Assembly: GCF_016745395.1 (NCBI RefSeq)
Contig: NZ_JAERVJ010000013.1
Coordinates: forward strand, 1-41,773
Length of the DNA stretch: 41,773 nt
Direction of reading: 5' to 3'
DNA from: Methylocystis sp. Sn-Cys
GTDB lineage: Bacteria; Pseudomonadota; Alphaproteobacteria; Rhizobiales; Beijerinckiaceae
Both the position numbers and the translations under genes were made by a program. Within the stretch, counting starts at the first letter, position 1. The number at the start of each line of letters is the position of its first letter. The notes under the pieces are model-generated. The model was not told the origin of the DNA, searched no databases, and was given only the letters and a program-made list of their open reading frames with translations. Of the stretch, positions 2,127-22,333 are shown one piece after another.

Positions 2127-2953
2127 TCAAATCGCGCGTTTGAAGTCTGCCAGTGGCAGAGTAAAGCTAAAGATCGCTCCGCCTTCCGGATTCGTCTCCG
2201 CCCATAAGCGGCCGTGGTGGGCTTCGATGATCGATCGGGAAATTGAGAGACCGACCCCCATTCCGTTGCCTTTGTCGTTCTGAAGGGTTCGAACAGAGTT
2301 TCTTGGATTTGCGCCGACAGGCCCGATCCTGTGTCGCACACATCTGTTCGGACCATGCTTGCATCTGTCGTTGATATCGCCAGAGTGAGCTTCCGCTTCG
2401 GGGGCCTCGCTCATTGCCTCGATCGCGTTGCGAACCAGATTGACTAGAACCTGCTGGATCTGGATTTTATCGGCAAGCACTCGGTCGTCTGGGGCGTCCA
2501 GGCGGAAACTGGCTTCGACGCCAGTAAGCCCCGCTGCCGAAACGGCGTCATAAGCGTCTCTAACCAGTTCGTGCATGCTTTGGAGGCTAACGTGCGGTTC
2601 GCCACGCATTGCAAAAGCCCTCATGCCACTGACAACCTGCCCCGCGCGCGCCACTTGCTCCGTGGCCTTATCCAAGGCGTCCACGATGTGGGGGCCTTGA
2701 AAAGCGATCGTCCTAGAAGCCGCTGCGCTGCGCTGAGATAAGCTGCGATCGCGGTGAGCGGCTGGTTGATTTCATGCGAAAGCGCCGCCGCCATTCCGCC
2801 CATTGCATCCAACCGATCGGCACGCAACTTCCGCATTCTTGCCTCCGTTTCCACCTTCTCGGTCAAGTTGTGCACCACAATCACGAAGAGACGCTGGTCG
2901 CGGTCAGCGGTTTCCGTTACGGCGTGACGTGCCCCTGAACTTTCATCCAGCAA
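2127..2953 (-). pseudogene. histidine kinase, HisKA and ATPase domains (3' half of split gene)
   Basis: Downstream part of a FixL-like sensor kinase. In order: end of the PAS core (RLFVIVVHNLTEK), a coiled linker (ETEARMRKLRADRLDAM), the phospho-acceptor H box (ALSHEINQPLTAI), the N box (LVNLVRNAIEAM), a G1 box CDTGSGLSAQIQETLFEPF, and GMGVGLSISRSIIEAHHG with the final AIFSFTLP. These boxes lie in different frames: one shift near 2690-2700, another before the G1 box near 2340, and another near 2285. With the IS3 insertion directly upstream at about 2954 the gene is clearly dead. It belongs with the fragment at 4188-5154. Confidence 0.85.
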
Positions 2954-3866
2954 TAATTAGAGTCGGAGCGTTTGATACGCCCGAGGGCGCGGATGTAGCA
3001 ACAGGCGATCGGCGGAGCTGGTCGGGGTTGCGCAGCCGATCGCCTGTTGCGGCGAGATTGGCCGCATAGTCCGCTGGCGTCGCGTAGCCGAGCGAAGAAT
3101 GCGGGCGTAAATGATTATAGTCGCTGACCCACGCGCCGATCTTCGCCCGCGCGTGGTCGAGGCCGAAAAATAGCGTTTCATTCAGAAGCTCGTCGCGCAT
3201 GCGGCCGTTGAAGCTCTCGCAAAAGCCGTTTTGCATCGGCTTGCCCGGCGCGATGTAGCGCCATTCGATCCCGCCTTCGCTTGCCCAGGACAGGATGGCG
3301 TTCGAGGTGAACTCCGTCCCGTTGTCGGAAACGATCATGCCCGGCTTGTCGCGCCGCCGGATCCGCGCGGACAGCTCACGGGCGACGCGCTTGCCCGAGA
3401 TCGACGTATCGGGGATCGCCGCCAGACATTCGCGCGTGACGGTCGTCGACGATGTTGAGGATGCGAAAGCGCCGGCCGCAGGCAAACTGGTCATGCACGA
3501 AGTCCAGAGACCAGCGCGCATTCGGCTTCGCCTCGACGAGGATCGGCGCCCGCGTCCGGCGCGGCGTCGGGAGCGGCGCTTGCGCACCGTGAGCCCTTCC
3601 TCGCGATAGAGCCTGTAGATGCGGTTCTTGCCGGAGCGCTCGCCTTGCTGACGCAGCAGGACGAACAGCCGCCGGTAGCCGAAGCGGCGGCGCGCGTTGG
3701 CGAGTTCTCGAAGCCTTTCGCGCAGAGCCGTATCGGCCTGACGCTTCGGGGCATAGCGGACCTTCGTGCGGTCGACGGCGACGATGCAGCAGGCCCGACG
3801 CTCCGACAGGCCCATCACGGCCCGAAGATGCGCGACGGCTTCGCGCCTGACGACGGGCCCTACCAT
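2943..3866 (-). pseudogene. IS3 transposase OrfB, with two compensating frameshifts
   Basis: DDE integrase-type transposase. The N-terminal helix-turn-helix part (GLSERRACCIV, RRFGYRRLFVLLR) and the C-terminal catalytic part (DNGTEFTS with the second Asp; GFCESFNGRMRDELLN with the Glu; YNHLRPHSSLGY) are in the main frame. The first catalytic Asp motif (ARWSLDFVHDQ) is readable only in another frame between roughly 3440 and 3570. An extra base near 3445 and a change near 3570 shift the frame and then restore it. The translated protein therefore keeps its length but lacks the first catalytic Asp, so it should be inactive. The start would normally be reached by ribosomal frameshifting from OrfA. 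Confidence 0.8.
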
Positions 3867-4160
3867 TTTGTTCCCAGAAGCTCCCGGAGCGCCGCCGCCT
3901 CGAGCATCTGATCCGCCAGGAGCTTCTTCAGCTTTGCATTCTCCTCCTCCAGCGCCTTCAGCCGTTTCGCTTCCGAAACGTCCATGCCCCCGAATTTTGC
4001 CTTCCAATTGTAGAGCGTCGCTTCCGAAACCCCGTGTTTGCGCGCCAGATCCGCGACCTTCGCGCCCGCCTCCTGCTCCCGCCAAATCCCGATAATCTGC
4101 TCTTCCGTGAACCGCTTCTTCTTCATCTCGCCCGTCCTGCATTGGGCCGGACTCTAATCC
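2954..4160 (-). mobile_element. IS3-family insertion sequence, about 1.2 kb
   Basis: Two overlapping transposase frames read on the minus strand between imperfect inverted ends. The left edge (from about 2955) reads AATAATTAGAGTC and the right edge, reverse-complemented, reads TTGGATTAGAGTC, so about 10 bases match. The element sits inside the histidine kinase gene, separating its PAS domain from its kinase core. I could not identify a clear target duplication, so the boundaries are good only to a few bases. OrfB carries two frameshifts, so the copy is probably not autonomous. Confidence 0.8.
3860..4126 (-). CDS. IS3 transposase OrfA (helix-turn-helix)
   Basis: An 88-residue protein beginning MKKKRFTEEQIIGIWREQEAG. 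It has the HTH of the IS3 OrfA family (KVADLARKHGVSEATLYNWKAKFGG) followed by a leucine-zipper-like coiled coil (RLKALEEENAKLKKLLADQ) used for OrfA-OrfAB contacts. It is intact. Its stop overlaps the candidate OrfB start by a few bases (TAG at 3860-3862, ATG at 3866), the usual arrangement for programmed frameshift expression of the fused transposase. Confidence 0.9.
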   Translation of the reverse strand: MKKKRFTEEQIIGIWREQEAGAKVADLARKHGVSEATLYNWKAKFGGMDVSEAKRLKALEEENAKLKKLLADQMLEAAALRELLGTKW

Positions 4161-8807: not shown

Positions 8808-10040
8808 CTATTGAAGCGTCGATAAATACGCCGCGATGTCGCGCGCTTGCTCCTCTGACACGCCCATATTTGGCATCGCGTTGCCCGGCACAATCGATTG
8901 CGGGTCGCGCACCCAGCGTGCAAGGTTCTCGGGCGTCTGGCGCAGCAGCCCGGCGATATAGACGCGCCGTCCCATGTGATCGAGCGGCGGACCGACAAGA
9001 CCGTTGGCGCCGGCAATGCCGGGGATGAGGTGGCAGGAGCCGCAGCCGATTTTCGTTATGGCCTCCGCGCCTTTTTGCGGATCGCCTGTAGCGCCCGCCG
9101 CCCTGGCCGCACGTTCAAGCGCTTTCTCATCATTGCAACCGGAGAGGAGAACGATGCAGGTGGCGGCCGACAGGGCTGCGCCGCGTGCGCCTCGGCCCTG
9201 TTCCGCGTGACGGAGCCAAAGAAATAGCAGGCCGAGGATTGCGGCAAGATAGATGAAGCCGGCCGGGATCCACATGACGAGGCCGGCGATCTGCTGGTCC
9301 TCCAAGGGGGTTAGTCCATACCGGGCGGTAGCGCCGGCATGGACTGAATAGAGCGGGCGCGGCGCAATTGAAATCAACGCGCCTGGCAGCGCGGAGAGAA
9401 GCGCCGCGGTGGAGACAAACATCAGACGCCCTCCTCGAGAGAGCCGCGTCAACTCGCCGAAGGCGACGGCCCAAAACGCGCAGGCGCTAACTAAAAACGT
9501 CAGATGTTCGGCGATATGCGCTTCTTCGTGCTGGAGCGCAAAAGCATAGGGTCCCGGCAAATGCCAAAAGGCGAAGAGACCCATGAACCACAGCCAGATC
9601 GCCAGCGGTGAAATGAAAAGCGCGGCGAAGGGCGCTTTTCGCGCGCGCCTCCAGATCCGCGCCCATATCCGGCGCCTGCTGGGCGCAAGCGCGCGCATGA
9701 CGATGATGTTGGGCTTGCCAAGAATGATAAGCGGAGCGCTCACCATCATCAGTGTCAGATGCTGCGTCATATGCGCGGAAAAAAGCGCGTCACTCAGACG
9801 ATTGAAAGTGGCGCTCAAGGACACGCCCGTGATGGCGAGCGCGGCTAAGCAGGCGCCGACCGCCCGTACATTGAAATCGCGCGCCAGGCTGCGCGCGCTT
9901 ATGCAAATCGCGCAGATCGACGCGAACGCCAGAACGCTTATCGGTAACCACCCATCCGGCCCCGCTGCTGCGCGGCCATGCGCCAAAGCCGCGTCAGGCG
10001 CCCCTGCGGCCAGCGTGACTGCCAGCATCAGCTTCCGCAT
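8808..10040 (-). CDS. ctaG: CtaG (caa3-type) membrane protein fused to a cytochrome c domain
   Basis: A 410-residue two-domain protein. Residues 1-20 are a signal-like segment. About 30-300 are a polytopic Caa3_CtaG domain (HMTQHLTLMMVSAPLIILG, WLWFMGLFAFWHLPG, EEAHIAEHLTFLVSA) with the conserved His residues thought to handle copper or heme during oxidase assembly. The C-terminal 100 residues follow a lipobox-like LLSGC and hold a class I cytochrome c: heme site CGSCH, GPPLDHMG, and a Met ligand in GNAMPNMG. The start at 10040 overlaps the preceding gene by 13 bases; ATG 10052 is an alternative. Last gene of the operon. The fusion puts an electron carrier on an assembly factor and is unusual. 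Confidence 0.85.
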   Translation of the reverse strand: MRKLMLAVTLAAGAPDAALAHGRAAAGPDGWLPISVLAFASICAICISARSLARDFNVRAVGACLAALAITGVSLSATFNRLSDALFSAHMTQHLTLMMVSAPLIILGKPNIIVMRALAPSRRRIWARIWRRARKAPFAALFISPLAIWLWFMGLFAFWHLPGPYAFALQHEEAHIAEHLTFLVSACAFWAVAFGELTRLSRGGRLMFVSTAALLSALPGALISIAPRPLYSVHAGATARYGLTPLEDQQIAGLVMWIPAGFIYLAAILGLLFLWLRHAEQGRGARGAALSAATCIVLLSGCNDEKALERAARAAGATGDPQKGAEAITKIGCGSCHLIPGIAGANGLVGPPLDHMGRRVYIAGLLRQTPENLARWVRDPQSIVPGNAMPNMGVSEEQARDIAAYLSTLQ

Positions 10041-10483
10041 GCTGGCACCCATATGATCGAGATGGTGGCAAAAAGAATCTGGAGCGCAAACCACACGCCG
10101 CCCCACACCCCCCAAATGGCGAGAAATCTTGTGCGACCCTGTCCGACATCGATCACACTTTCATGTCCGCCTTCCGCCTCTCCGCTTGTTCGACGCCAGA
10201 CAGACAGTGCGACCAAAGACGCCACGACGGCGATCGCGAGGCAGAGGAGATTAAGCGCGATGACGACGGGCTCGACCCACTCCCAGCCCGGCGCCAGCGA
10301 GGATCTCGGCCGGTCCGATGGAAAGCAGGCATGACTTGCGAGGCCATAATTGACAAGGAGTTGCACGCTCCAGGCGAGCGGCGAGGCGAGCAAGGCTCCG
10401 AACAGCAACGCAAGCGAGGTGCGCGCGCGATGCGGCGCGGGCGGTTCCACGCCATAGATGGAGAGAAGGTCGTCTTTCGCCAT
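10028..10483 (-). CDS. small membrane protein of the oxidase operon
   Basis: A 151-residue protein with three hydrophobic segments (about 23-45, 75-95 and 125-146) and a loop between the first two containing CFPSDRP. Its ATG overlaps the ctaE stop (TGATG), and its end overlaps ctaG, so it is translationally coupled to both. The position between subunit III and CtaG is where small uncharacterised subunits or assembly proteins of caa3 oxidases are encoded. I do not recognise the family. The conserved-looking pattern of Trp and Arg around the membrane edges suggests a structural subunit, but that is inference. Confidence 0.75.
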   Translation of the reverse strand: MAKDDLLSIYGVEPPAPHRARTSLALLFGALLASPLAWSVQLLVNYGLASHACFPSDRPRSSLAPGWEWVEPVVIALNLLCLAIAVVASLVALSVWRRTSGEAEGGHESVIDVGQGRTRFLAIWGVWGGVWFALQILFATISIIWVPACGS

Positions 10484-11085
10484 CAGTCACTCCCGAGATA
10501 GGGCGTGATGTAAAAGGTGAAGAAGATCGTGAGCCAGACAAGATCCACGAAGTGCCAGTAGACAGCCGCGATCGAGATCGTCGCATGACGTTGCGCGTCG
10601 AAATAGCCAAGAAACGACCAAAGCAGCCCCGCAGCAAGCATCAGCAGTCCGACAACCACATGCGCCATGTGAAAGCCGGTCGTGACGTAAAAGCTCGACC
10701 CGTAGGACGTGTCGTGAATGCCGAAGGGCTTCTGCCGCCATTCGAGAATCTGAATAGCGACGAAAATGACGCCCAGTGTTGCGCCGCCTGCGAGTCCCAG
10801 CAACTGGCTGGCGCGCGCGCCGCGTTTGACGCTTTGCTCGGCCCACCAGACGAAGACGCTGCTCGCCAACAGGATGAGGGTGTTGAGACCGGCCAGTGTG
10901 ACTTTTGGTCGTTCTGGAATCCAGTCCGACCCGTATTGGGCTGCGAAGTAGTAATAGATGAACAGCAAATACGCGAAGAGCGACGCCTCCGTCATAATGA
11001 CGGTCATCATCCCCCACCAGCCGAAGGTCTTATGGCCAACGCTGCCGACGGGCAGTTTTCGGGCGCCGATGGCGACGTCAGACAT
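10483..11085 (-). CDS. ctaE: cytochrome c oxidase subunit III
   Basis: A 200-residue subunit III of the heme-copper oxidase superfamily. It has about five membrane helices: GMMTVIMTEASLFAYLLFIYYYF, LNTLILLASSVFVWWAEQS, LGLAGGATLGVIFVAIQILEW, SFYVTTGFHMAHVVVGLLML and AVYWHFVDLVWLTIFFTFY. The conserved Glu of helix 1 (TEAS) and the GFHMAHV and YWHFVDLVW motifs are the family signatures. Five helices rather than seven is the short form found in caa3 and quinol oxidases. ATG 11085 lies 8 bases inside ctaD. Subunit III stabilises subunit I; it has no metal centre. Confidence 0.92.
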   Translation of the reverse strand: MSDVAIGARKLPVGSVGHKTFGWWGMMTVIMTEASLFAYLLFIYYYFAAQYGSDWIPERPKVTLAGLNTLILLASSVFVWWAEQSVKRGARASQLLGLAGGATLGVIFVAIQILEWRQKPFGIHDTSYGSSFYVTTGFHMAHVVVGLLMLAAGLLWSFLGYFDAQRHATISIAAVYWHFVDLVWLTIFFTFYITPYLGSD

Positions 11086-13030
11086 GTTTTCTCTCCGCGA
11101 TTTGGCCGAGTGAGCGCCGCGGCCAAAGCCAATAGAGAAGCAAAAGAAGCAGGACGGCGCCGCCGATGGCGACGATGCCCCAGGAGTGGAGCAGCGCGGC
11201 GGCGCCGATCGCGGTAGCCGCAAGCGCCGTCAGCAGCGGCGCGATTGAATCTTCCGGCATCTTCATGATGGCGTCCGGCTCTGCGTCAAGCGCAGTGGTC
11301 GTCAACATCTCCTTGCCGTCATCGAGGCGCAGCCCGCGTCCCATTGATGAACTGCCCGACGCTTCGTCAAGATGTTCCTCCCAGAGCGGATGCCGGCTGG
11401 CTACAGCCGGCATCACCTCAAAGTCGTAGGACGGCGGCGGCGATGGTACCGACCATTCCAGCGTGGGCCCTCCCCATGGGTCCGGTCCCGCGACAGCGCC
11501 GCGACTGCGACTGACGATCACATTGACGAGAAGCAGCAGGATGCCGAGCGCGAGGATAAAGGCGCCGATCGTCGTGACGAGATTGACGGCGCCCCAGCCA
11601 AAACCATCCGGGTACGTGTAGATGCGACGTGGCATGCCGGCGAGACCCGTCCAATGCATCGGCAGAAAGGCGATGTTGAAGCCGGCGAAAGTCGTCCAGA
11701 AACACCAGCGCCCGAGTCGTTCGTCGAGAAGTCGTCCGGTAATTTTCGGGAACCACACATGGATCCCTCCCATTACCGCCAGCACATTGATGCCGATAAG
11801 CACATAATGAATATGGGCAACCACGAAATAGGTGTCCGTAAGCTGCTGATCACTGGGAGCCGCCGCCGTCATGACACCCGAGACGCCGCCAATCACGAAT
11901 GTGATGATAAAGCCGGCGAAGAAGAGAAACGCTGTCGACACCACTGGCCGCCCCGTCCAGATTGTTGCGATCCAGGCGAAGACCGCAACCGCGCTCGGCA
12001 CTGTGATGACAAAGGACGCCGCGCTGAAAAACGACAGCGCGAGATAGGGTATGCCCGTCGCGAACATGTGGTGCAGCCAAACGCCAAAGCCCATCACCAT
12101 AGTCGCGACAGTGGCGAGCACGACCACGGTGTAGCCAACCAGCGGGCGCCGGCAGAAAATCGGCAAGGCGTCGGACACAATGCCCATCGCCGGCAGCACG
12201 ACCACATAGACCCAGGGATGCGCGAATATCCAAAAGAGATGTTGCCACAAAAGCGGCTGCCCACGCCCGGCCTGGTCGAAGAAATGCGTCTCGAATTGCC
12301 GGTCCGTCCAGAGCAGGAAGAACGCCAGACTGACGGCGGGCACTGAAAAGAGAATGCCGAAGGAGGTTGTCAACGTGCCCCAGGCGAGGATTGGGATGCG
12401 ATTGATCGACATGCCCGGCGCTCGTGCGCGCAGGAAGGTCACGACGAAATTCGTAGCGCCGGCCGTTGAGGATATTCCGAACAGAATCATGCCGAGCGCG
12501 TAGAAGTCCATGTTCGGACCGGGATTATACTGCTTCAGCGCATACGGAACGTAATTGAACCAGCCGTCATTTGGACCATAGCCGATCGCAAACCCTGCAT
12601 AGATGAAAAGGCCAGAGAGCAAATAGATCCAATAGGAGAACGCGTTGAGGCGCGGAAAGGCCATGTCGCGCGTGCCGAGGATGAGTGGAAAGAGAAAGAC
12701 GCTGAAGCCCGACAGAACCGGCTGCGCATAGAGAAAGATCATGGTCAGGCCATGCATCGAGAAGAGCTGGTTGTATTGCTCGGGCGTAAGCAGCGACTTG
12801 TTCGGCCCGGCGAGCTGAATGCGCATGACCAGCGCTTCGATCCCGCCCAGCAACAGGAAAGCGAATGCCGTCACGATGTAGCGTTTGCCATATTCCTTGT
12901 GGTCGACCGTCGAGAGCCAGCCGAGCACGCCCGGTTCGCTTCTCCAGATCTCTTCGAGATCGCGCTGCTCCCGCTGATGCCGCGCAACTCCGTGGAGTTG
13001 GACGGGACGGTGATAGTCGGTAACCGCCAT
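11078..13030 (-). CDS. ctaD: cytochrome c oxidase subunit I, atypical proton-channel residues
   Basis: A 650-residue subunit I. All metal ligands are visible: H93 (FSMHGLTMIF) and H408 for heme a, H406 for heme a3 (VVAHIHYV), and H271, H320 and H321 for CuB, with Y275 of the His-Tyr pair. The ring-D propionate arginines are present (GMPRRIYTYPDGF). Two residues used for proton conduction in A1-type enzymes differ: the Glu of HPEVY is W273 (AHPWVY), and the K-channel Lys of VPTGIKIF is A349 (VPSAVAVF). D122 of the D-channel mouth (RDMAFPR) is kept. The C-terminal ~110 residues add two further hydrophobic segments beyond the usual 12 helices. Ten bases separate it from ctaC. Codes for the oxygen-reducing core in the inner membrane. 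Confidence 0.95.
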   Translation of the reverse strand: MAVTDYHRPVQLHGVARHQREQRDLEEIWRSEPGVLGWLSTVDHKEYGKRYIVTAFAFLLLGGIEALVMRIQLAGPNKSLLTPEQYNQLFSMHGLTMIFLYAQPVLSGFSVFLFPLILGTRDMAFPRLNAFSYWIYLLSGLFIYAGFAIGYGPNDGWFNYVPYALKQYNPGPNMDFYALGMILFGISSTAGATNFVVTFLRARAPGMSINRIPILAWGTLTTSFGILFSVPAVSLAFFLLWTDRQFETHFFDQAGRGQPLLWQHLFWIFAHPWVYVVVLPAMGIVSDALPIFCRRPLVGYTVVVLATVATMVMGFGVWLHHMFATGIPYLALSFFSAASFVITVPSAVAVFAWIATIWTGRPVVSTAFLFFAGFIITFVIGGVSGVMTAAAPSDQQLTDTYFVVAHIHYVLIGINVLAVMGGIHVWFPKITGRLLDERLGRWCFWTTFAGFNIAFLPMHWTGLAGMPRRIYTYPDGFGWGAVNLVTTIGAFILALGILLLLVNVIVSRSRGAVAGPDPWGGPTLEWSVPSPPPSYDFEVMPAVASRHPLWEEHLDEASGSSSMGRGLRLDDGKEMLTTTALDAEPDAIMKMPEDSIAPLLTALAATAIGAAALLHSWGIVAIGGAVLLLLLLYWLWPRRSLGQIAERKHV

Positions 13031-13040: not shown

Positions 13041-14066
13041 CTATTTCAGAGTCTCTAGGTAATCGCGGATGACGGACAGTTCTGGAGCTGAAAGCGCCAG
13101 CATTGGCATTTTGGCGCCGGGCTTGATCCTCTGCGGATCGGCGATCCAGCCGGAAAGATTGGCTGGCGTGTTGGGCAGCGTGTTCGCCGCGATTCCAGCG
13201 CGGCTCATGAGATGCGTGAGGTCGGGCCCGAGCATGCCCCAGGCGCGCGTTCCACGCACGGTGTGACAGGCGCCGCAACGCGCGACGAACAGCGCTTCGC
13301 CTGCGCTGTTCATGCTTGCCGCGGTCTGCAATTGCGCGTCCCGCCAGGAGCGGAATTGCTCAGGAGACTCGGCGACAATGACGATGCCCATATGAGCATG
13401 CTGCTTGCCGCAATATTCGGAGCACTGCCCCCGATAGACGCCGGGCGTATTCGCCTCGAACCAGGTCCTGTTGGTCTGGCCGGGAATGACGTCGATCTTG
13501 TCGCCGAGCGCGGGCGCCCAGAAGGAGTGAATGACGTCGGTCGATTCAACCTCGACGCGCACCGGCTCTCCGAGCGGGATGTGCGCCTCATTCGCGGTTT
13601 GAAAGGATTCGGAGGGAGCTTCAGTCCGATAGCGGTATTCCCACCACCACTGATGCGCAATCACTCGGATCGTCAAAGCCGGATCTCGAGGCGGCTTGTC
13701 GATCGCGGCCATGGTGTAGGCGTTCCACACCATGCCGCCGAGCAACGCCAGAGTGGAGATCGACACGCCGATGGTGATCCAGGACAAGTCTCCTGACGGC
13801 CGCAAGATCGGCTCGAACCGGGCGCCGGCGGCGTCGACCGTGGTCCTGCGCTTCAAGACGCCGACGACGGTCAGCGCTGTGACGACGACCACAACAACGA
13901 TCGACAGGATCAGCATCGCCCAGGTCAATGACGCGATGACGCTCGCCTTGTCCCCGAAAGCTTGCAAGAAATTCATCGGCGGCGTCGGCGTATCGGCGGC
14001 TTGTGCGGCGAGGCCAATAGAAACGGCGAGAGCTGGGACAAGAGCGGGAAGTCGCGCAAGCATCAT
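13041..14066 (-). CDS. ctaC: cytochrome c oxidase subunit II with fused cytochrome c domain (caa3 type)
   Basis: A 341-residue subunit II. Signal peptide about 1-23, two membrane helices (about 44-71 and 95-118), then the periplasmic cupredoxin with the complete CuA site: H180 (DVIHSFW), C215, E217, C219, H223 and M226 (CSEYCGKQHAHM). A cytochrome c domain follows, with heme site CGACH at 264-268 and Met ligand near GAKMPMLAL. This is the caa3 arrangement, in which subunit II carries its own electron donor. ATG 14066 is chosen because it overlaps the stop of the preceding cytochrome gene (ATGA) and gives a clean signal peptide; the frame is open further upstream but that part is the antisense of the cytochrome gene. 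Confidence 0.95.
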   Translation of the reverse strand: MMLARLPALVPALAVSIGLAAQAADTPTPPMNFLQAFGDKASVIASLTWAMLILSIVVVVVVTALTVVGVLKRRTTVDAAGARFEPILRPSGDLSWITIGVSISTLALLGGMVWNAYTMAAIDKPPRDPALTIRVIAHQWWWEYRYRTEAPSESFQTANEAHIPLGEPVRVEVESTDVIHSFWAPALGDKIDVIPGQTNRTWFEANTPGVYRGQCSEYCGKQHAHMGIVIVAESPEQFRSWRDAQLQTAASMNSAGEALFVARCGACHTVRGTRAWGMLGPDLTHLMSRAGIAANTLPNTPANLSGWIADPQRIKPGAKMPMLALSAPELSVIRDYLETLK

Positions 14067-14821
14067 CGCCTCCCGCTCGGACTTTGGCCGAAACTGAAGC
14101 GCTCGGTATGGCTCCAGGGATTCGGCGACTGCGAGAATTCCGCCGGAAGTTGTTGCACCGTCCAGGCGTCGTGCGAGGCGGTTTTCCCCCATCCCGTCGT
14201 CGGCGATTTGCTGATACTCTGAATATAGGCTGTAAGGTCCCAGATGATGTTCTCGGGCAACATCGCGCCCCATGACGGCATGCCGTTGGGGCGTCCCTGA
14301 TAAATGCTGAGATAGATGTTTGCGGGATCGTCTCCGTAGATGAAAAACCTGTTGCTCAGCGCTGGCCCCATGCCGCCGCCGCCGTTCGGCGCGTGACATC
14401 CCGAACAGTTGAATGAATCGAAGTAACTCATGCCGCGCTGGATGGCTTCCGGATCGCCCTCCACGGGATTTCTGACGTTGCCTTCAAGCGCCATCTTTCC
14501 AGGAAACAGATTAGATACGGGTGTCTGGCCGATGCCCGGGCCGACCGACGGATAAAGCCTGACGCCGGCATTGCCGCCCGACGCATCTTTCTGAGCAGGG
14601 ACTGACGACGTTGCCGGCGCGTGGGGCGGACTGGTCTGGCCTTCATCATTCACTGGAGCTTGCTGAGCTGGCGGGGAAGGCTGCGCGTGCGGCTCCTGCG
14701 GCGCCGGCGCCCTCTGGTGCGATGTTTTTGGGCGCGCCAGCGCGTCGGGCCAGGCCGAGACAAGCAGGGGCAGGACAAGCAGGCCTATCGCCGCCAATGC
14801 CTTCGTCGGAGTCGCGGGCAT
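14063..14821 (-). CDS. periplasmic cytochrome c linking alcohol dehydrogenase and oxidase
   Basis: A 252-residue secreted monoheme cytochrome c. Signal peptide 1-29 (AIGLLVLPLLVSAWPDALA), then a Pro/Ala/Gln-rich linker of about 60 residues, then a class I heme domain with CSGCH, GGGMGPALSNRFFIYGDD and Met ligand in GMPSWGAMLP, and a C-terminal extension after YIQSI. It lies 12 bases after the binding-protein gene and overlaps ctaC by 4 bases. Position and architecture suggest it is the electron acceptor of the PQQ dehydrogenase (the role of XoxG/MxaG cytochromes) and the donor to the caa3 oxidase. The flexible linker would let it shuttle between the two; that is inference. Confidence 0.88.
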   Translation of the reverse strand: MPATPTKALAAIGLLVLPLLVSAWPDALARPKTSHQRAPAPQEPHAQPSPPAQQAPVNDEGQTSPPHAPATSSVPAQKDASGGNAGVRLYPSVGPGIGQTPVSNLFPGKMALEGNVRNPVEGDPEAIQRGMSYFDSFNCSGCHAPNGGGGMGPALSNRFFIYGDDPANIYLSIYQGRPNGMPSWGAMLPENIIWDLTAYIQSISKSPTTGWGKTASHDAWTVQQLPAEFSQSPNPWSHTERFSFGQSPSGRR

Positions 14822-14833: not shown

Positions 14834-15637
14834 TCAGTCACCATCAACAAGCGGGACGCCATAGCTCTCCAGCAGCGCGTGGATGACGCCGCTCTTTCGA
14901 CGGATGATGTCGTCGAGGCGGCGCTTCAACTTATCGTCGCCCTTGCGCACGCCCATCGAAATATCGAAGGCGAATTGTAGCGGCGCGTAGTCATCCGTCC
15001 TGGCTATCATGTCGATGTGTAGCGGCGCTGATGCGTGCTTCGCCTCATAGCCGGCAAACGGCCCCCAGACAGCCGCGACATCGAGAGTCCCGCTTTCTAC
15101 AGCTTGGATCGGACGCAGCGCCGGCGAGGGCTCTCTGTAATCGCCAAAGATTGAATAGCCGACGACATTCGAAACCATGCCGCGCGCGCCGAGCACGTGA
15201 GCCGGCGGGGTGTTCATGCCGTCATCGCCGACGAGATGCACGCCGATCTTCAGGGTGCGAAGCCGATCATCCGCGAGCGACGTGACATCAAGTTCGCGAT
15301 CCGCTCGCGAAACGAACACGTAAGCAGAACGGTAATAGCGCAGGGTCGTTTCGACTGCATCGTAATTTGTTGGCACGCCCATGACGAGATCGCAAGCGCC
15401 AGCCTTCAGCGTGTTGCGGATGAAGCCGCGTCTTTGCGCCCACCAGGTATAGGATAGAGTCTTGCCGAGTTCGCTTGCGACAAGCTCCGCAAGCTTGTTT
15501 TCAAAGCCGGTGCCTTTGGCGTCGGAAAATGGCAAATTATTGGGGTCGGCGCAGACTCGGAGGCTATCCTCGGCCCGCGCGCTGGACGGCGGAGAAGAGA
15601 GCGCCCCAATCGTCAGGCAGGTCGCGAGAACGCGAAT
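14834..15637 (-). CDS. XoxJ/MxaJ-like periplasmic binding protein of the PQQ dehydrogenase
   Basis: A type-2 periplasmic-binding fold protein of the group found with quinoprotein dehydrogenases. Motifs: LRVCADPNNLPFSDAKG, GFENKLAELVA, AGACDLVMGVP, YYRSAYVFV, GVHLVGDDGMNTPPAHVLG, DVAAVWGPFAGYEA. XoxJ is thought to help activate or load XoxF. No ATG, GTG or TTG gives a full N-terminus: the first TTG (15535) starts inside the mature domain. An ATT at 15637, placed just after AGGAGGAG and right behind the dehydrogenase stop, opens a normal signal peptide (RVLATCLTIGALSSPPSSARA). I therefore propose an ATT start (267 residues). A CTG at 15616 is the alternative. Confidence 0.85.
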   Translation of the reverse strand: MRVLATCLTIGALSSPPSSARAEDSLRVCADPNNLPFSDAKGTGFENKLAELVASELGKTLSYTWWAQRRGFIRNTLKAGACDLVMGVPTNYDAVETTLRYYRSAYVFVSRADRELDVTSLADDRLRTLKIGVHLVGDDGMNTPPAHVLGARGMVSNVVGYSIFGDYREPSPALRPIQAVESGTLDVAAVWGPFAGYEAKHASAPLHIDMIARTDDYAPLQFAFDISMGVRKGDDKLKRRLDDIIRRKSGVIHALLESYGVPLVDGD

Positions 15638-15639: not shown

Positions 15640-15650
15640 GCTCCTCCTAT
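15640..15650 (-). promoter_or_regulatory. ribosome-binding site overlapping the dehydrogenase stop
   Basis: TAGGAGGAG overlaps the stop codon of the PQQ dehydrogenase gene. It is the strongest Shine-Dalgarno sequence in the operon and sits about five bases before the proposed ATT start at 15637, supporting translation from that unusual codon. Confidence 0.6.
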
Positions 15651-17476
15651 TGTCGCGGCTGCTCGCCGAGCGAAAAGACCAGCAGTGTGCTTCCGCCAAC
15701 CGTATACAGCGGCAAATCCTGCGTCGCACCGGTGAAGCCGAGCGCGCCGTTCCTTACCCGGGGGTCGACTTCCGCATTGGCGACGACACCTGGCCAGCCG
15801 CCGACGCCAGACATGATCGCGACATATTGAACCCCGTCATTTCCGAGATACGTCACGGGCTGCCCAATGAAGCCGGAGGGCCCCCGCATCTGCCACAGGA
15901 CCTTCCCCGTTCGCGCGTCCAGCGCCTTGAACATTCGGTCCATGGTTCCATAGAAGACGACATCGCCGGCGGTCGCGAGCGCTCCTGTCCACACCGGGAA
16001 TGTTTCTGTGATGGACCAGACTTTGCTTCGCTTGGCAGGATCCCACGCCATGAACTCCCCTCTGTACCCGCCGGGGCCTGCATACATGTCGACAATCGCT
16101 CCGACGAAGGGCGTCCCCGCGATGTAGCTGACTTCACTCGTCCGGAAGTTGGCGCAAAGATGCTGATGCGGCACGTAAAGCAGCTTCGTCTTCGGCGACC
16201 AGGCGGTCGGCTGCCAGTCCTTCGCCCCCGGCGGCGCCGGACAGATGTTCTCCACCGTCTTGCCGAGTGCCGGCTGCTTCGCCTCGACAGGCTTGATGCG
16301 TCCCGTATCGAGATCGACGCCCGCATAGACATTGACAGTGTCATAGGCGTCGGCGGAGAGGACTTCTCCAGAAGTGCGGTCAATGACATACATGTAGCCG
16401 TTGCGGCCGGGGTGGATCAGCGCCCTGCGTGACGCACTGCCAATATCGAGATCGACCAGCACATTCTCATTGATCTCGTCGTGGTCCCAAAGATCGTGCG
16501 GGCTTGCCTGATAAGCCCAGCTCGCCATGCCTGTGTCGGCGTTCCGCGCGAAGATCGTGCTGGTCCAAAGATTATCGCCCTCACGCTGATTGGCGTTCCA
16601 AGGCCCGGGATTGCCTGAGCCGTAATAAACGAGATTCAGATCGGGGTCGTATGATAACCATCCCCAGACCGTGCCGCCTCCCATGCGCCAGCGATCCGCA
16701 GGCCAGCTCTTCACGCCGAGATCCTTGCCCTTCATCCAGTCGTAAAACGGCTTGAAATCCGCGCCAATCAGCACATCGGCATCCGGCCCGGTCGAAAAGG
16801 CGCGCCACGCGATCCTGCCGTCGCTTTGATCGAGCGCCGTCAACCAGCCGCGCACACCCATTTCGCCGCCGCTGTTGCCGGCGAAAACTTTTCCTTTCAC
16901 GGCGAGCGGAGCCATGGTGATTGTCTCGCCGAGATTGATGTCGCCGATTTTCGTGACCCAAAGCTCTTTGCCGCTCGACGCGTCGATCGCAACCACGTGA
17001 TCGTCGAGCGTGTTCAGGAATATCTTGCCATTGTCGTAAGCAAGGCCGCGGCTCACCACATCGCAGCACGCAACGCCCTTTGCTGCTGGATCGGGCTTTG
17101 GCGCGTAGGACCATTTCAGTTCGCCACTGGTGGCGTCCAGCGCGTAAACCTGATTGGGGTTCGGCCCGTCGTAAGGCGAGACGACATACATCATGCCGTC
17201 AATAACGAGCGGCGCGGCCTCCTGGCCGCGATTTGCGCCGACGGAAAAGGACCAGGAAAGTTTAAGCTGCGAGACGTTATCAACCGTGATCTGATCGAGC
17301 GCGCTGTAGCGCGTATTCGCGTAATCTCGCGCCGCCATCGGCCAGTTTCTGGCGTCAGTGGCGAGATCGGCAAGCCTTTTGTTCGGCGGCGCCTGCTGCG
17401 CCGTCACTTGTGAGGCGCCTGCCGCGACCAGGCAAATAGCAAGCTGGAACGTCATCAAAAGGGATGGTTTTCGCAT
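15647..17476 (-). CDS. PQQ-dependent alcohol dehydrogenase, lanthanide type
   Basis: A 609-residue periplasmic quinoprotein of the methanol/ethanol dehydrogenase family: signal peptide about 1-26, then an eight-bladed propeller with repeated W-docking motifs (LDATSGELKWSY, IDASSGKELW, LDARTGKVLW). The vicinal disulfide over PQQ is C137-C138 (ACCDVVSRG). Metal ligands are E205 (GGEMGVRG), N289 (GSGNPGPWN) and D331. Two residues on is D333 (LWDHDE), the extra Asp that marks lanthanide-dependent enzymes (XoxF, ExaF, PedH); calcium-type MxaF has Ala there. The N289-D331 spacing of 42 equals that of MxaF. It is the first gene of an operon ending in a dedicated terminal oxidase. The genes order and a XoxJ-like partner favour an XoxF-like role, but substrate (methanol or longer alcohols) cannot be read from sequence. 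Confidence 0.93.
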   Translation of the reverse strand: MRKPSLLMTFQLAICLVAAGASQVTAQQAPPNKRLADLATDARNWPMAARDYANTRYSALDQITVDNVSQLKLSWSFSVGANRGQEAAPLVIDGMMYVVSPYDGPNPNQVYALDATSGELKWSYAPKPDPAAKGVACCDVVSRGLAYDNGKIFLNTLDDHVVAIDASSGKELWVTKIGDINLGETITMAPLAVKGKVFAGNSGGEMGVRGWLTALDQSDGRIAWRAFSTGPDADVLIGADFKPFYDWMKGKDLGVKSWPADRWRMGGGTVWGWLSYDPDLNLVYYGSGNPGPWNANQREGDNLWTSTIFARNADTGMASWAYQASPHDLWDHDEINENVLVDLDIGSASRRALIHPGRNGYMYVIDRTSGEVLSADAYDTVNVYAGVDLDTGRIKPVEAKQPALGKTVENICPAPPGAKDWQPTAWSPKTKLLYVPHQHLCANFRTSEVSYIAGTPFVGAIVDMYAGPGGYRGEFMAWDPAKRSKVWSITETFPVWTGALATAGDVVFYGTMDRMFKALDARTGKVLWQMRGPSGFIGQPVTYLGNDGVQYVAIMSGVGGWPGVVANAEVDPRVRNGALGFTGATQDLPLYTVGGSTLLVFSLGEQPRQ

Positions 17477-17777: not shown

Positions 17778-18893
17778 ATGGCGTCCGCCGCCAAACGATG
17801 CGTGATGGCGTTCTTCGGCGTCGCGTTATCCATAGTGCTCGCCTTTCTTTTGTTCGCCGCGTCTGGGCTCTACGATGTTGCGGCAAGCAGAATGCATTGG
17901 AAGTTGACACGCGAATTTTTGGCTTTTGGCCTGCGCAGAGCGGTTGCAACGCATAGTCGCAACATTTCAGCGCCCAAGCTCGACGACATGAACCTGATCG
18001 TGCTCGGCGCCGGTCATTTCGAGGATGGCTGCGCGCCCTGCCACGGCGCCCCTGGTCGACCGAGCAATCCAATTGCCGAGCGCATGCTCCCGAACCCTCC
18101 CCATCTTGGCGCCGTGGTCTCCAGCTGGAGTCCAGAGGAGCTATTCTGGATCGTGAAGCACGGACTGAAATACACCGGTATGCCGGCTTGGGCTGCGACG
18201 GCGCGGGACGATGATGTGTGGTCCGTGGTTGCGTTCCTGCGCAAGCTGCCCGAGACAAGTCCCGACCGATATCGTTTGCTGGCGACCGGCGGAACAGGCA
18301 GGTCAGATCAGATCATCGCTCTCGGCGCAGCGAGCCCTAAGAGCGAGGATCTCGCGAACTGCACGGGATGTCATGGGCGCACTGGCCTTGGCAGCGCGCT
18401 AGTCCCCCGTCTTGCTGGGCAACCTCAAGGCTATCTAGAGCAATCCCTGCACGACTTCACGTCGGGGCTCCGCCAGAGCGGCGTGATGCAGCCCATCGCG
18501 GCGACGCTCGATACCGAGACGCTGAAGGCGATCTGCGCCCACTTTTCGAAGCTTGAGCCGTCGCGCGCAAAGGTGCCGATGGCGGAAGACGGCGCAATCG
18601 GCCGGGGGCTCGAAATTGCAACGCGAGGCGTAGCAGAGACGAACGTCCCCGCCTGCCGCATTTGTCACAGTGAGACGGCTTCGCCGAACGTTCCGAGACT
18701 CGATGGCCAGTATGCCCTTTACATCGAAGAACAGCTCAAACTTTGGCGGAGGGGATTGCGGCGCCAGTCCGGCAACGCCACTGTCATGCGGATTATCGCC
18801 TCACGCTTGAGCGAGGCGCAAGCGAAAGACGTCGCCGCTTATTTCGAGAACGCGACGCGTTTCGAGCCGTCTTCGCCGCTGGCGAAGCGATAG
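17778..18893 (+). CDS. membrane-anchored triheme cytochrome c
   Basis: A 371-residue protein with an N-terminal membrane segment (VMAFFGVALSIVLAFLLFAASG, about 9-32) and three class I heme sites: CAPCH (about residue 89), CTGCH (about 197) and CRICH (about 296). Candidate Met ligands lie in TGMPAW, GVMQPI and ATVMRI. This is the organisation of the cytochrome subunits of flavoprotein gluconate or alcohol dehydrogenases, which pass electrons to quinone or cytochromes in the periplasm. The small and large subunits of such an enzyme are encoded four genes on in the same direction. The start is ATG 17778, directly after the stop of a possible leader peptide. Confidence 0.88.
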   Translation: MASAAKRCVMAFFGVALSIVLAFLLFAASGLYDVAASRMHWKLTREFLAFGLRRAVATHSRNISAPKLDDMNLIVLGAGHFEDGCAPCHGAPGRPSNPIAERMLPNPPHLGAVVSSWSPEELFWIVKHGLKYTGMPAWAATARDDDVWSVVAFLRKLPETSPDRYRLLATGGTGRSDQIIALGAASPKSEDLANCTGCHGRTGLGSALVPRLAGQPQGYLEQSLHDFTSGLRQSGVMQPIAATLDTETLKAICAHFSKLEPSRAKVPMAEDGAIGRGLEIATRGVAETNVPACRICHSETASPNVPRLDGQYALYIEEQLKLWRRGLRRQSGNATVMRIIASRLSEAQAKDVAAYFENATRFEPSSPLAKR

Positions 18894-19006
18894 CGACGCG
18901 TTGCCTCGAACAATGAGGCAAGCTTTTGGCTTTCGTATTGAGGAACGCGCCGACCCGCCATCCGTTGATCTAAAAGCCGATGCGCGTACTTCGGAGCGCC
19001 GCCGTC

Positions 19007-20794
19007 ATGAGCAACACCGTTGGGGACTTCTTCGTCCATCGCCTCTACGAATGGGGAGTGCGGCGGATCTTCGGCTATCCGGGCGACGGCATCAATGGCG
19101 TGCTCGGCGCATTGCAACGCTCGTCTGAAAAAATCGAGTTCGTGCAAGTACGTCACGAGGAGATGGCGGCGTTTATGGCGTCCGCACATGCGAAGTTCAC
19201 GGGGGAACTTGGCGTTTGCCTGTCGACCGGCGGCCCGGGCGCGTCGCATCTGATCACCGGGCTCTATGACGCGAAATGTGACCATATGCCTGTCCTCGCC
19301 ATCGCCGGCCAGGCGCCGCGTACAGCTCGTGGCGCTCATTATCAGCAGGAGCTCAACCTCGATCGCATGTTCTCGGACGTCGCCGCTTTCGTGCAGGAAG
19401 CGGAGACGCCCTCGCAAGTGCGTATGCTCGTCGACCGCGCGATCCGCATCTCCAAGGCGCAGAGCGCCGTGTCGGTTATCGTTCTGCCGGCCGACTTGCA
19501 GGATTTCGATTATGAGGAGCCGCCACGCAAGCATGGCTCGGTGAAGACGGGGGTCGGCTATTCGCGTCCGACGATCCTTCCCGGCGACGATGACATCAGG
19601 CGCGCCGCCGATGTGCTGAACGCTGGCGACAAAGTGGCGATGCTGGTCGGCGCCGGCGCTCTACATGCGAGAGATGAAGTCTGCGCCGTCGCCGATCGTT
19701 TGCAGGCGGGCCTCGCAAAAGCGCTGCTGGGCAAGGCGGTGGCGCCTGACACGCTCCCCTGGGTGACAGGCTCGATCGGACTTCTCGGCACCAAGCCGAG
19801 CTACGACATGATGATGGAGTGCGATACCCTGTTGATGGTGGGCTCCGGATTTCCCTACTCGGAATTCCTGCCTCGCGAAGGGCGGGCGCGTGGCGTGCAG
19901 ATCGATGTCGACGCATCGATGCTCAGCATGCGCTACCCAATGGAGGTGAACCTGCACGGCGACGCCGCCGCGACTCTCCGGGCGCTGATTCCGCATCTCG
20001 AGGATAGGAGCGATACGCGCTGGCGCGACAGGATCGCGAGCGGCGTCTCCGACTGGTGGACGCTTCTGGAGCAGCGCGCGTTTGCGCCGGCCAACCCGGT
20101 GAACCCGCAACGGGTCGTCTGGGAACTGTCGCCACAGCTTCCTGACGACGCCATCATCACATGCGACTCGGGCTCATGCGCCAACTGGTATGCGCGAGAC
20201 ATGAAAATCAGGGGCAAGATGATGTGTTCGCTATCCGGCGGTCTCGCCTCGATGGGGGCCGCTGTGCCTTACGCGATCGCAGCGAAATTCGCGCATCCCG
20301 CGCGGCCGGTCGTAGCGCTCGTCGGCGACGGCGCGATGCAAATGAATAACATGGCTGAGCTGATCACCGTCAGCAAATATTGGCGCGACTGGGCAAGTCC
20401 GAAATGGATATGCTGCGTTTTCAACAATGAGGACCTCAATCAGGTCACCTGGGAGCAGCGGGTGATGCAGGGGAATCCGAAATTCGAGGCGACGCAGAAT
20501 ATTCCGGATGTTCCTTATCACCGCTTCGCCGATTTGATCGGGCTGAAAGGGATTTTCGTTGACAACCCCGAATCCCTCGCGGAAGCGTGGCAGGAGGCCT
20601 TCTATTCCGAGCGGCCAGTCGTGCTCGAAGTTAAGACCGATCCCGAGGTGCCGCCGCTTCCCGCGCATATCTCCTTCGAGCAGGCGCGCAATTTCGCGGC
20701 GACGCTCTTCAAGGGCGATCCTGAGGAGGGCGCGCTCATCGCCGGCGCGGCAAGGCAGGTTCTCGCGCCCATCCTGCCCCGGGAGAAAGAATGA
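19007..20794 (+). CDS. thiamine-diphosphate enzyme, pyruvate oxidase/acetolactate synthase-like
   Basis: A 595-residue ThDP enzyme with the three usual domains. The PYR domain has FGYPGDGINGVLGAL and the catalytic Glu in VRHEEMAAFMASAHAK; the middle domain has MLVGAGALHA; the PP domain has the metal/ThDP motif GDGAMQMNNMAEL with a downstream Asn in FNNEDLNQVTWEQR. The overall pattern is closer to PoxB-type pyruvate oxidases than to acetolactate synthases, but the substrate is not certain. ATG 19007 is chosen over 18980 because a GGAG site lies about eight bases before it and the family usually starts near VGDFFVHRLYEWG. It overlaps the next gene by 4 bases (ATGA). Its place inside a flavoprotein-cytochrome operon is odd. 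Confidence 0.85.
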   Translation: MSNTVGDFFVHRLYEWGVRRIFGYPGDGINGVLGALQRSSEKIEFVQVRHEEMAAFMASAHAKFTGELGVCLSTGGPGASHLITGLYDAKCDHMPVLAIAGQAPRTARGAHYQQELNLDRMFSDVAAFVQEAETPSQVRMLVDRAIRISKAQSAVSVIVLPADLQDFDYEEPPRKHGSVKTGVGYSRPTILPGDDDIRRAADVLNAGDKVAMLVGAGALHARDEVCAVADRLQAGLAKALLGKAVAPDTLPWVTGSIGLLGTKPSYDMMMECDTLLMVGSGFPYSEFLPREGRARGVQIDVDASMLSMRYPMEVNLHGDAAATLRALIPHLEDRSDTRWRDRIASGVSDWWTLLEQRAFAPANPVNPQRVVWELSPQLPDDAIITCDSGSCANWYARDMKIRGKMMCSLSGGLASMGAAVPYAIAAKFAHPARPVVALVGDGAMQMNNMAELITVSKYWRDWASPKWICCVFNNEDLNQVTWEQRVMQGNPKFEATQNIPDVPYHRFADLIGLKGIFVDNPESLAEAWQEAFYSERPVVLEVKTDPEVPPLPAHISFEQARNFAATLFKGDPEEGALIAGAARQVLAPILPREKE

Positions 20795-21735: not shown

Positions 21736-22333
21736 TGTCGCATCGCCCTACGCGGGCTATGACGTCCTTGCGAAATGGAACACGCCGTCCTTCGACGATG
21801 TGACGCGCGACGCGCTGACTCGCCGACTGAACGAGACGCCGCCCCGACGCTTCTTGTCGCCGAAGGAGTTGTCGCTCCTCGAAGCGGTCGTCGTACGCGT
21901 CGCGCCGCCGCTGCCTGGATTAAGCCCTTCACTCATAGCCCTCTGGATCGACGACCGCCTGTCTCGAAATCTTGGCGAGGGCTTTCGCGGCGAGGAAGCG
22001 CTCCCTTGGTCGCAGATGTGGCGTTACGGCCTCGCCGCCATCGACGGCGAAGCGAGACGCCTATTTTCCGCGTCCTTCGTCGAACTGGACGGCGGCGGGA
22101 GGGACGCGACGCTCCGTGTGGTTCAGGCCGGCAATGTGAACCCTGAGCTTTGGCGCCGTGTTGGCGCTGAGAGCTTTTTTACGGACACGTTGCTGAAGAC
22201 AGTCGCCGGTCTTGCTTACGCGCATCCTTCCGCCTGGAACGATATCGGCTTCGGCGGTCCGGCGAGCCCGCGTGGATATGTGCGCCTCGGCTTCGGTACG
22301 CGCGACCCCTGGGAGGCGAAGGAGCTGCGATGA
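21710..22333 (+). CDS. gluconate 2-dehydrogenase subunit 3-like protein
   Basis: A 207-residue member of the gluconate 2-dehydrogenase subunit 3 family, the small chaperone-like partner of GMC flavoprotein dehydrogenases. The family start is seen at RRFLSPKELSLLEAVVVRVAPP; further on come ALIDDRL-like ALWIDDRLSRNLGEGF and the C-terminal AYAHPSAWNDIGFGGPASPRGY. In the classical three-subunit enzymes this subunit carries a Tat signal that exports itself and the flavoprotein. None is visible here: the first 40 residues are hydrophilic and the RRFL lies within the domain. Start ATG 21710 has a GGAAG site. The stop overlaps the GMC start (ATGA), consistent with a complex. Confidence 0.85.
   Translation: MPEIAKQHDVASPYAGYDVLAKWNTPSFDDVTRDALTRRLNETPPRRFLSPKELSLLEAVVVRVAPPLPGLSPSLIALWIDDRLSRNLGEGFRGEEALPWSQMWRYGLAAIDGEARRLFSASFVELDGGGRDATLRVVQAGNVNPELWRRVGAESFFTDTLLKTVAGLAYAHPSAWNDIGFGGPASPRGYVRLGFGTRDPWEAKELR

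What the first reader, a model, noticed from the sequence alone, without database searches (positions are those of the whole stretch)
11078..13030. Oxidase subunit I lacks the HPEVY glutamate and the K-channel lysine
All heme and copper ligands and the active-site Tyr are present, so the enzyme should bind its cofactors. But the glutamate that passes protons in A1-type oxidases (HPEVY) is Trp (HPWVY, residue 273), with no Tyr-Ser pair of the A2 type after it, and the lysine of the K channel (VPTGIKIF) is Ala (VPSAVAVF, residue 349). The D-channel mouth Asp is kept. Both losses in one protein predict altered or absent proton pumping and perhaps an uncoupled, electron-sink oxidase, which would suit dumping electrons from a periplasmic dehydrogenase.
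Basis: partly seen in the sequence, partly recalled or inferred. Interest (0 to 1): 0.85.

Follow-up and report, generated by a model that had tools for sequence, protein, structure and literature searches.

The report
Oxygen-reducing enzyme missing its proton channels
This bacterial cousin of our own cytochrome c oxidase keeps everything needed to reduce oxygen but lacks key residues of both proton channels, and its relatives seem to have lost them in steps, so it may burn oxygen without pumping protons.

Summary
The COX1 protein at 11078-13030 (-) keeps its metal ligands and active-site Tyr, but has Trp273 at the E286 site and Ala349 at the K362 site (R. sphaeroides numbering). One detail was wrong: the A2-type Tyr-Ser pair sits before HP, not after; it is absent here too. 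It is not an error: all 120 best database hits and all 44 rows of its clade carry Trp; ctaD dN/dS is 0.14-0.19. In one large clade the K-channel Lys was replaced (Gln, later Ala) together with the K-channel Glu of subunit II (in 27 of 27 Lys-bearing rows, 0 of 66 Lys-less). Inside it the D-channel Glu became Trp twice (single origin rejected, p-AU 4e-5), Leu beside one Trp group, and Asp; rhizobial members lost the entry Asp instead. The operon with a PQQ dehydrogenase is the published 'COX operon type a-II'; I saw no report of these losses in 10 searches of open papers. Best reading: a working oxidase taking chemical protons through the remaining D channel, with little or no pumping, draining a periplasmic dehydrogenase. 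Pumping was not measured.

The parts
11078..13030 (-). ctaD-like subunit I (650 aa), E286 and K362 replaced; two extra C-terminal helices (597-613, 617-635)
12212..12214 (-). Trp273 codon (E286 position)
11984..11986 (-). Ala349 codon (K362 position)
12665..12667 (-). Asp122 codon (D132, D-channel entry, kept)
12698..12700 (-). Val111 codon (N121 position, lost in this sub-branch)
12206..12208 (-). Tyr275 codon (active-site Tyr288, kept)
12428..12430 (-). Arg201 codon: basic residue at the end of helix IV, typical of Lys-less enzymes
11948..11950 (-). Arg361 codon: basic residue just after helix VIII, typical of Lys-less enzymes
13041..14063 (-). ctaC subunit II, CuA motif and fused cytochrome c domain; start as annotated in the Methylocystis iwaonis plasmid
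13767..13787 (-). stretch of ctaC (LSWITIG) where Lys-bearing relatives have LE(I/V)xWT; the glutamate is absent
10483..11085 (-). ctaE subunit III; start as annotated in the Methylocystis iwaonis plasmid
10028..10483 (-). small protein of the operon, no Pfam or NCBIfam match
8808..10028 (-). CtaG (Caa3_CtaG) fused to a cytochrome c domain
14063..14821 (-). cytochrome c, likely carrier between dehydrogenase and oxidase
14834..15535 (-). MoxJ-like substrate-binding protein (TIGR03871)
15647..17476 (-). PQQ-dependent methanol/ethanol-family dehydrogenase (TIGR03075); WDHD motif suggests a lanthanide enzyme (motif rule recalled)

Best explanation
A functional A-type cytochrome c oxidase from a large clade that dismantled its K channel in both subunits and then, in this branch, replaced the D-channel glutamate by tryptophan. 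Electrons run from the periplasmic PQQ dehydrogenase through cytochrome c and the heme c and CuA of CtaC to heme a and heme a3/CuB, where O2 is reduced to water (inferred from the parts). Chemical protons most likely enter from the cytoplasm through the kept D-channel entry (D132, N139, N207) and reach the site by water without a Glu shuttle. Pumping is expected to be absent or low, so each electron conserves about one charge (electron from outside, proton from inside) rather than two. Physiologically it would be a low-coupling electron outlet for alcohol oxidation. Shown: residues, conservation, order of losses in the tree, operon. Inferred: proton route, missing pump, role.
For: Metal ligands and Tyr invariant in the rows with Trp273 and ctaD under purifying selection. 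D132, E286, K362 and subunit-II E101 are named in PMC8239185 as the ionizable residues at the channel ends, whose mutation led to loss of activity (passages). K-channel Glu of subunit II in 27 of 27 Lys-bearing and 0 of 66 Lys-less rows, 1 row without sequence there. D132, N139 and N207 each 153 of 153 in rows with Trp273. No replacement acid near the site. NO reductases, defined by H-X-Arom-X-E (passage of PMC3084760), have by spacing an aromatic at the E286 position; cNOR does not pump (PMC5826923, passages). All 17 Trp-oxidase genomes searched (of L005-L034 16 of 30, plus L043) have at least one more place matching COX1, the own genome three more, among them a canonical aa3 and a cbb3: an accessory oxidase. 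PQQ dehydrogenase (over 200 bits) within the fetched flank at 10 of 30 Trp loci L005-L034 and 0 of 50 of L035-L084.
Against: B- and C-type oxidases lack both residues and still pump, at a lower ratio (PMC12901375, passages), so sequence loss does not prove lack of pumping. Natural enzymes may differ from laboratory mutants. The same paper argues for an H pathway for pumped protons. 20 of 30 Trp loci show no PQQ dehydrogenase over 200 bits in the fetched flank, among them all those titled Caballeronia, Paraburkholderia, Burkholderia, Trinickia, Nitrosospira or Nitrosovibrio, so the partner is not fixed; some flanks are short. The dN/dS values against the two distant copies rest on near-saturated dS (1.6 and 1.9); of the operon's other genes ctaG (0.53) and the binding protein (2.3, 8 differences) do not show the same constraint. 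No coordinates, hemes or waters were examined.
Confidence: 0.5

Rival explanations
1. The enzyme still pumps, by another route: a rewired D channel with water or Tyr/Ser in place of Glu, or an H-type pathway.
For: B and C families pump without these residues (PMC12901375). D-channel lower part strictly conserved. Y101 on helix II is conserved (150 of 153).
Against: No replacement acid near the site. Y101 also occurs in the Glu- and Lys-bearing Gordonia enzyme and is Phe in 46 of 46 rows of the second Trp group, so it is not tied to Trp. No YS of A2 type. B-type alternative K-channel residues absent except one Ser.
Confidence: 0.27
2. Protons for water formation come from the periplasm, as in cNOR, so the oxidase is non-electrogenic, a pure electron sink.
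For: K channel gone in both subunits and one end of the D channel gone in several branches; basic residues gained at the ends of helices IV and VIII, cytoplasmic by recalled topology; aromatic at the E286 position as in NORs (by spacing).
Against: D-channel entry D132 kept in 153 of 153 rows with Trp273, which would be pointless.
Confidence: 0.12
3. The protein is not an O2 reductase in the main but a NO reductase or an oxygen/NO detoxifier.
For: Aromatic at the E286 position as in NORs; ammonia oxidizers among the hosts of Trp loci (L013, L014).
Against: Active-site Tyr invariant (153 of 153 rows with Trp273); the NOR glutamate is absent (HPWVY, not H-X-Arom-X-E); heme and CuB ligands as in oxidases.
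Confidence: 0.04
4. Sequencing error or decaying pseudogene.
For: Both changes hit textbook-essential residues.
Against: Trp in all 120 best database hits and in loci of three proteobacterial classes and Gemmatimonadota; dN/dS 0.14-0.19 for ctaD; 98.9% identical copy on a Methylocystis plasmid.
Confidence: 0.01

Closest known systems
COX operon type a-II (Degli Esposti 2014, PMC4013037; later 'A1 oxidases, subtype a', PMC6431628; passages read)
   Same: Alphaproteobacteria and several Betaproteobacteria; COX1 with C-terminal extension (described there as COX1-COX4 fusion); PQQ dehydrogenase related to MxaF often in the operon; Caa3_CtaG often with subtype a.
   Different: In the main text of PMC4013037 the words proton and channel do not occur; PMC6431628 files the type under A1, whose Glu is absent here. 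Loss of Glu, Lys and subunit-II Glu not seen in the passages read.
Canonical A1 cytochrome c oxidase (R. sphaeroides, P. denitrificans; own genome L001)
   Same: Fold, metal ligands, active-site Tyr, D132, N139, N207, S299.
   Different: E286 to W, K362 to A, T359 to S, N121 to V, subunit-II E101 absent.
A2-type (Anabaena plasmid L098, M. radiotolerans plasmid L104)
   Same: No Glu at E286.
   Different: Both have FYS before HP and keep K362 and the subunit-II Glu.
B- and C-type oxidases
   Same: Naturally lack E286 and K362 (table in PMC12901375).
   Different: They keep a K-type channel and lost D (PMC8239185); this clade lost K and kept the D entry.
Rhizobial oxidases: R. etli p42b (L091; by replicon probably RHE_PB00063-66, 'putative cytochrome c oxidase' in PMC4274787) and Bradyrhizobium plasmids (L092, L093)
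   Same: Same Lys-less clade; L092 and L093 lie by a PQQ dehydrogenase, L091 shows none in the fetched flank.
   Different: E286 kept, but D132 is Asn and N207 is Glu (119 and 120 of 120).

Membership tests
A-type heme-copper oxygen reductase | 12-helix COX1 core with heme/CuB His ligands and Tyr in helix VI | tested here: met
A-type heme-copper oxygen reductase | K channel: Lys354/362, Thr351/359, Ser291/299, Tyr280/288 (list in PMC3084760) | tested here: not met
   A349, S346, S286, Y275: Lys and Thr replaced, Ser and Tyr kept
A1 subtype | Glu278/286 in HPEVY | tested here: not met
   Trp273; Trp in 120 of 120 best hits and 44 of 44 rows of the clade
A2 subtype | Tyr (YS) in place of the Glu | tested here: not met
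   FA precedes HP; references L098 and L104 have FYS
A-type, D-channel entry | D132, N139, N207, N121 | tested here: inconclusive
   D132, N139, N207 met; N121 is Val in the query
B-type | alternative K channel: Tyr-I with a Thr, a Ser and a Tyr in place of the A-type residues (PMC3084760) | tested here: not met
   A349, S346, S286; only the Ser fits the table in PMC12901375
NO reductase | H-X-Arom-X-E and no cross-link Tyr (PMC3084760) | tested here: not met
   HPWVY: aromatic present, but Tyr instead of Glu
COX operon type a-II | PQQ dehydrogenase in or by the operon | tested here: met
   window 15647-17476; L090 annotation
COX operon type a-II | COX1 fused to COX4 | tested here: inconclusive
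   two extra C-terminal helices in the model; Pfam finds COX1 only
CoxMNOP of B. japonicum | orthology to CoxN | not tested
   CoxN sequence was not reached; no claim made
Proton pump | H+/e- ratio | not testable with these tools
   needs enzyme

The most novel reading that the evidence does not exclude
A widespread clade of A-type oxidases in which the two textbook proton paths were taken apart in order (K channel first, in both subunits; then one or the other end of the D channel, in several branches, with Trp at the Glu site arising twice). It uses a proton route not described for A-type enzymes, and either pumps without E286 and K362, or is the first A-type group that has given up pumping altogether.
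Probability: 0.3. Interest if true: 0.9.

Novelty: new variant of a known kind. Interest (0 to 1): 0.68.

Why it matters
Whether pumped protons go through the D channel and its Glu or through a different (H) pathway is still argued in 2026 (abstract and passages of PMC12901375). Mutants of the channel-end residues lose activity (PMC8239185), so the question is hard to test with them. Here nature supplies presumably active A-type enzymes without both residues, with relatives carrying Glu, Asp, Leu or Trp on one Lys-less background. Measuring H+/e- across that series would test directly what the Glu and the K channel are for. It also bears on energy yield: operons annotated as cytochrome c oxidase in methanotrophs and other bacteria may conserve less energy than models assume.

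Tried and rejected
Tyr101 as a stand-in for the Glu: conserved in 150 of 153 rows with Trp273, but Phe in 46 of 46 rows of the second, actinobacterial Trp group and present in the Glu- and Lys-bearing Gordonia enzyme; dropped as a specific substitute.

Relocated carboxylate at I112: the site is Gln103 in the query and Leu, Gln, Ser, Gly or Ala in 148 of 153 rows (five commonest states); rejected. In a scan of titratable residues conserved in the core helices the Trp group differs from its Glu-bearing relatives by Glu46 (92 of 121; mostly Arg or Lys in the Lys-bearing and actinobacterial rows), Tyr101 and Cys293, and has Arg for Lys at 201. Glu46 starts helix I, on the cytoplasmic side by recalled topology, so I do not take it as a replacement, but it is the one acid that differs.

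B-type K channel: residues absent apart from one Ser. CoxMNOP identity: R. etli coxMNOP is a different locus from RHE_PB00063-66 (PMC4274787, passages), so I do not equate the window with CoxN; the lack of a clear phenotype of coxMNOP mutants there and in C. necator (PMC11540253, passage) is therefore not used.

Structure distances: the model gave no coordinates, so no cavity or contact claims are made.

Literature: 10 searches of open-licence papers; listings and, for ten papers, passages were seen; no paper was read whole. Reviews in subscription journals could not be read, so prior notice there is possible. 'HPWVY': 0 papers.

Caveats on counts. The 153 rows with Trp273 were chosen by that residue, so only other columns are counted on them; they hold the query twice (Q, L002) and L043. 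Row L079_2376 lacks the Lys too (Met, Glu kept) and stands outside the Lys-less clade on a long branch: a separate Lys loss; it was left out of the tree, and its own subunit II was not in the table. In one search, 94 of 206 rows were used (most P rows, nine near-duplicates, L002 and the fragment L030_13818 left out). In one search, 71 rows were picked by identity thresholds; L079_2376, L092, L090, L002, the fragment and L043_6149 (its protein is there as P0241) were left out; columns 101, 122, 273 and 349 were removed; the root branch had support 35 only; the search was the quick one. The Leu and actinobacterial Trp clades are sisters (89), so they may be one loss of Glu; the Asp rows stand low in the actinobacterial part, so the direction between Glu and Asp is open. 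The one-clade test was run after a first tree had shown L043 apart. The 120-row sets are the best hits listed out of about 8000 each, not population frequencies. In one search one Lys-less row (L014) matched a loose Glu motif. Some loci had short flanks (for example L009, L031, L036), so absence of a PQQ dehydrogenase there is weak evidence. Genomes behind loci have no stated completeness.
Full report
WHAT IS THERE. The ORF at 11078-13030 on the minus strand encodes a 650-aa COX1 protein. In a 206-row alignment it keeps H93, H406 and H408 (hemes), H271, H320 and H321 (CuB), Tyr275 (active site), R468 and R469, and the D-channel residues D122, N129 and N194 (D132, N139, N207), but has Trp273 at the E286 site, Ala349 at K362, Ser346 at T359 and Val111 at N121. 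Its remark on Tyr-Ser is misplaced: in the two A2-type references the pair precedes HP (FYSHPAVY in L098 and L104); the query has FA there.

NOT AN ERROR. All 120 best database hits carry HPWVY. In the 206 rows 153 have Trp, 41 Glu, 11 Asp, and one is a fragment without the site; in the tree all 44 rows of the query's clade have Trp. In the 153 Trp rows D132, N139, N207, H284 and Tyr288 are each 153 of 153, and K362 is Ala in 139, Gln 6, Ser 4, Thr 2, Gly 2. A copy 98.9% identical lies on plasmid NZ_CP143317.1 of Methylocystis iwaonis, so the window probably comes from a close relative of that methanotroph; within the stretch fetched, window 6096-31556 aligns to it in pieces at 94-99% identity. 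dN/dS for ctaD is 0.14 against that copy and 0.18-0.19 against two distant ones with near-saturated dS.

ORDER OF LOSSES. Further sets were fetched from a rhizobial and an actinobacterial relative. Of 120 rhizobial-type rows: Glu at 286 120, Gln at 362 120, D132 replaced by Asn in 119 and Thr in 1, N207 replaced by Glu in 120. Of 120 actinobacterial-type rows: Gln at 362 120, D132 120, and at 286 Glu 55, Trp 46, Leu 19. A tree of 71 rows with the trait columns removed puts its 55 Lys-less rows in one clade (support 100, quick method). The proteobacterial/Gemmatimonadota Trp clade (support 99) and the actinobacterial Trp clade (support 97, sister to a Leu clade at 89, inside a 25-row clade of support 99 that otherwise has Glu) are apart. 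The fewest changes are 8 at 286 (A2 rows included), 4 at 362 and 3 at 132. Forcing the 19 Trp rows into one clade costs 80 log-likelihood units, p-AU 4e-5. So within this clade the Lys went first; a non-acid at 286 arose at least twice later, Trp both times (Leu may share the actinobacterial loss); Asp also occurs, direction open; in rhizobia the entry Asp was lost instead, with a Glu at N207. One row outside this clade, L079_2376, lost the Lys separately (Met) and keeps the Glu. Among Lys-bearing rows the only Glu-less ones seen were the two A2-type enzymes, which have YS; that sample is small (28 rows).

SUBUNIT II AGREES. In R. sphaeroides Glu101 of subunit II is near the K-channel entry (PMC8239185, passage). 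In the alignment of CtaC proteins by locus that Glu is present in 27 of 27 rows whose subunit I has the Lys and in 0 of 66 whose subunit I lacks it; one Lys-less row had no sequence there. Acids occur within eight residues in 42 of 67 Lys-less rows, but not at that column. The K channel thus seems gone at both ends. Basic residues came with the Lys loss: at 201 (end of helix IV; K or R in 54 of 55 Lys-less tree rows, 1 of 16 Lys-bearing) and at 361 (just after helix VIII; 52 of 55), seen also in the larger sets. By recalled topology both face the cytoplasm; their meaning is open.

SUBSTITUTE ACID? Among titratable residues conserved in the 12 core helices, the Trp group differs from Glu-bearing relatives by Glu46 (92 of 121), Tyr101 and Cys293, and has Arg for Lys at 201. 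Glu46 starts helix I and is not taken as a replacement; no acid appears near the lost Glu in sequence. Helices are from an AlphaFold2 model, mean pLDDT 86.7, pTM 0.90, whose best structural matches are T. thermophilus caa3, mycobacterial aa3 and E. coli bo3.

SURROUNDINGS. Upstream on the same strand lie a PQQ alcohol dehydrogenase, a MoxJ-like binding protein and a cytochrome c; downstream CtaE, a small protein and CtaG with a cytochrome c domain. A PQQ dehydrogenase scoring over 200 bits lies in the fetched flank of 10 of 30 Trp loci (L005-L034) and 0 of 50 other loci (L035-L084, which include the actinobacterial Trp locus L043). Of the plasmid loci read, Trp types L095 and L096 have one and L097 has none; Glu-bearing Lys-less types L092, L093 and L101 have one, L091 and L102 none in the flank. 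The gene is patchy: the DNA pattern for F(A/G)HPWVY is in 5 of 289 genomes of the class and 7 of 80 of the family, own genome included. The 17 Trp-oxidase genomes searched (16 of the 30 loci, and L043) each hold at least one more place matching COX1; the own genome holds a canonical aa3, a second A-type with Glu and Lys, and a cbb3.

HOW IT PROBABLY WORKS. Metal sites and Tyr say O2 reduction; strict conservation of D132, N139 and N207 says protons still enter by the D channel; loss of Glu286, which in the accepted scheme gives protons both to chemistry and to pumping (PMC8239185), says the pump stroke is probably lost or weak. The NO reductases, defined by H-X-Arom-X-E (PMC3084760, passage), carry by spacing an aromatic at this very position, and cNOR does not pump (PMC5826923, passages): an analogy, not proof. 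Against this, B- and C-type enzymes also lack both residues and pump at reduced ratio (PMC12901375). They, however, kept a K-type channel and lost D (PMC8239185); this clade did the reverse.

KNOWN OR NEW. The operon type is published (PMC4013037: COX operon type a-II, with COX1-COX4 fusion and often a PQQ dehydrogenase; PMC6431628: A1 subtype a; passages read). What seems unreported, within the open library searched (ten searches, listed under tried and rejected), is that these 'A1' enzymes lack the residue that defines A1, lack the K channel in both subunits, and that the losses are ordered and partly convergent. I rate it a new variant of a known kind.

Noticed in passing
window 14834-15535: The MoxJ-like binding protein ORF starts at TTG without a visible signal peptide, and against the Methylocystis iwaonis copy it has 1 synonymous and 7 non-synonymous differences, unlike its neighbours; it may be misread at its start or under relaxed constraint.
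   Followed up: partly
window 17778-23973: A second electron-donor system faces the other way: c-type cytochrome, TPP enzyme, gluconate 2-dehydrogenase subunit 3 and GMC oxidoreductase, all in the same block on the Methylocystis plasmid.
   Followed up: no
window 2943-4142: Integrase-core (transposase-type) protein beside the block, just outside the part shared with the Methylocystis iwaonis plasmid.
   Followed up: no
window 15647-17476: The PQQ dehydrogenase has WDHD (second Asp kept), the recalled sign of a lanthanide-dependent enzyme; the plasmid annotation starts it inside the frame, after what looks like a signal peptide.
   Followed up: partly
L091-L094, L101, P0121-P0240: Rhizobial-type oxidases with a natural D132N plus K362Q combination and the Glu kept, most with N207E; a separate test case for D-channel entry.
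   Followed up: partly
P0241-P0360: Actinobacterial oxidases with Glu, Trp or Leu at the E286 site on one background (55, 46, 19 of 120).
   Followed up: partly
L079_2376 (L079, 2376-4457): A second oxidase on the same contig as a Glu- and Lys-bearing one, with Met at the K362 site and Glu kept, outside the Lys-less clade.
   Followed up: no
L003 (own genome, contig C19): A further A-type COX1 with Glu and Lys kept, 36% identical to the query, hitting TIGR02891 below its cut-off.
   Followed up: no
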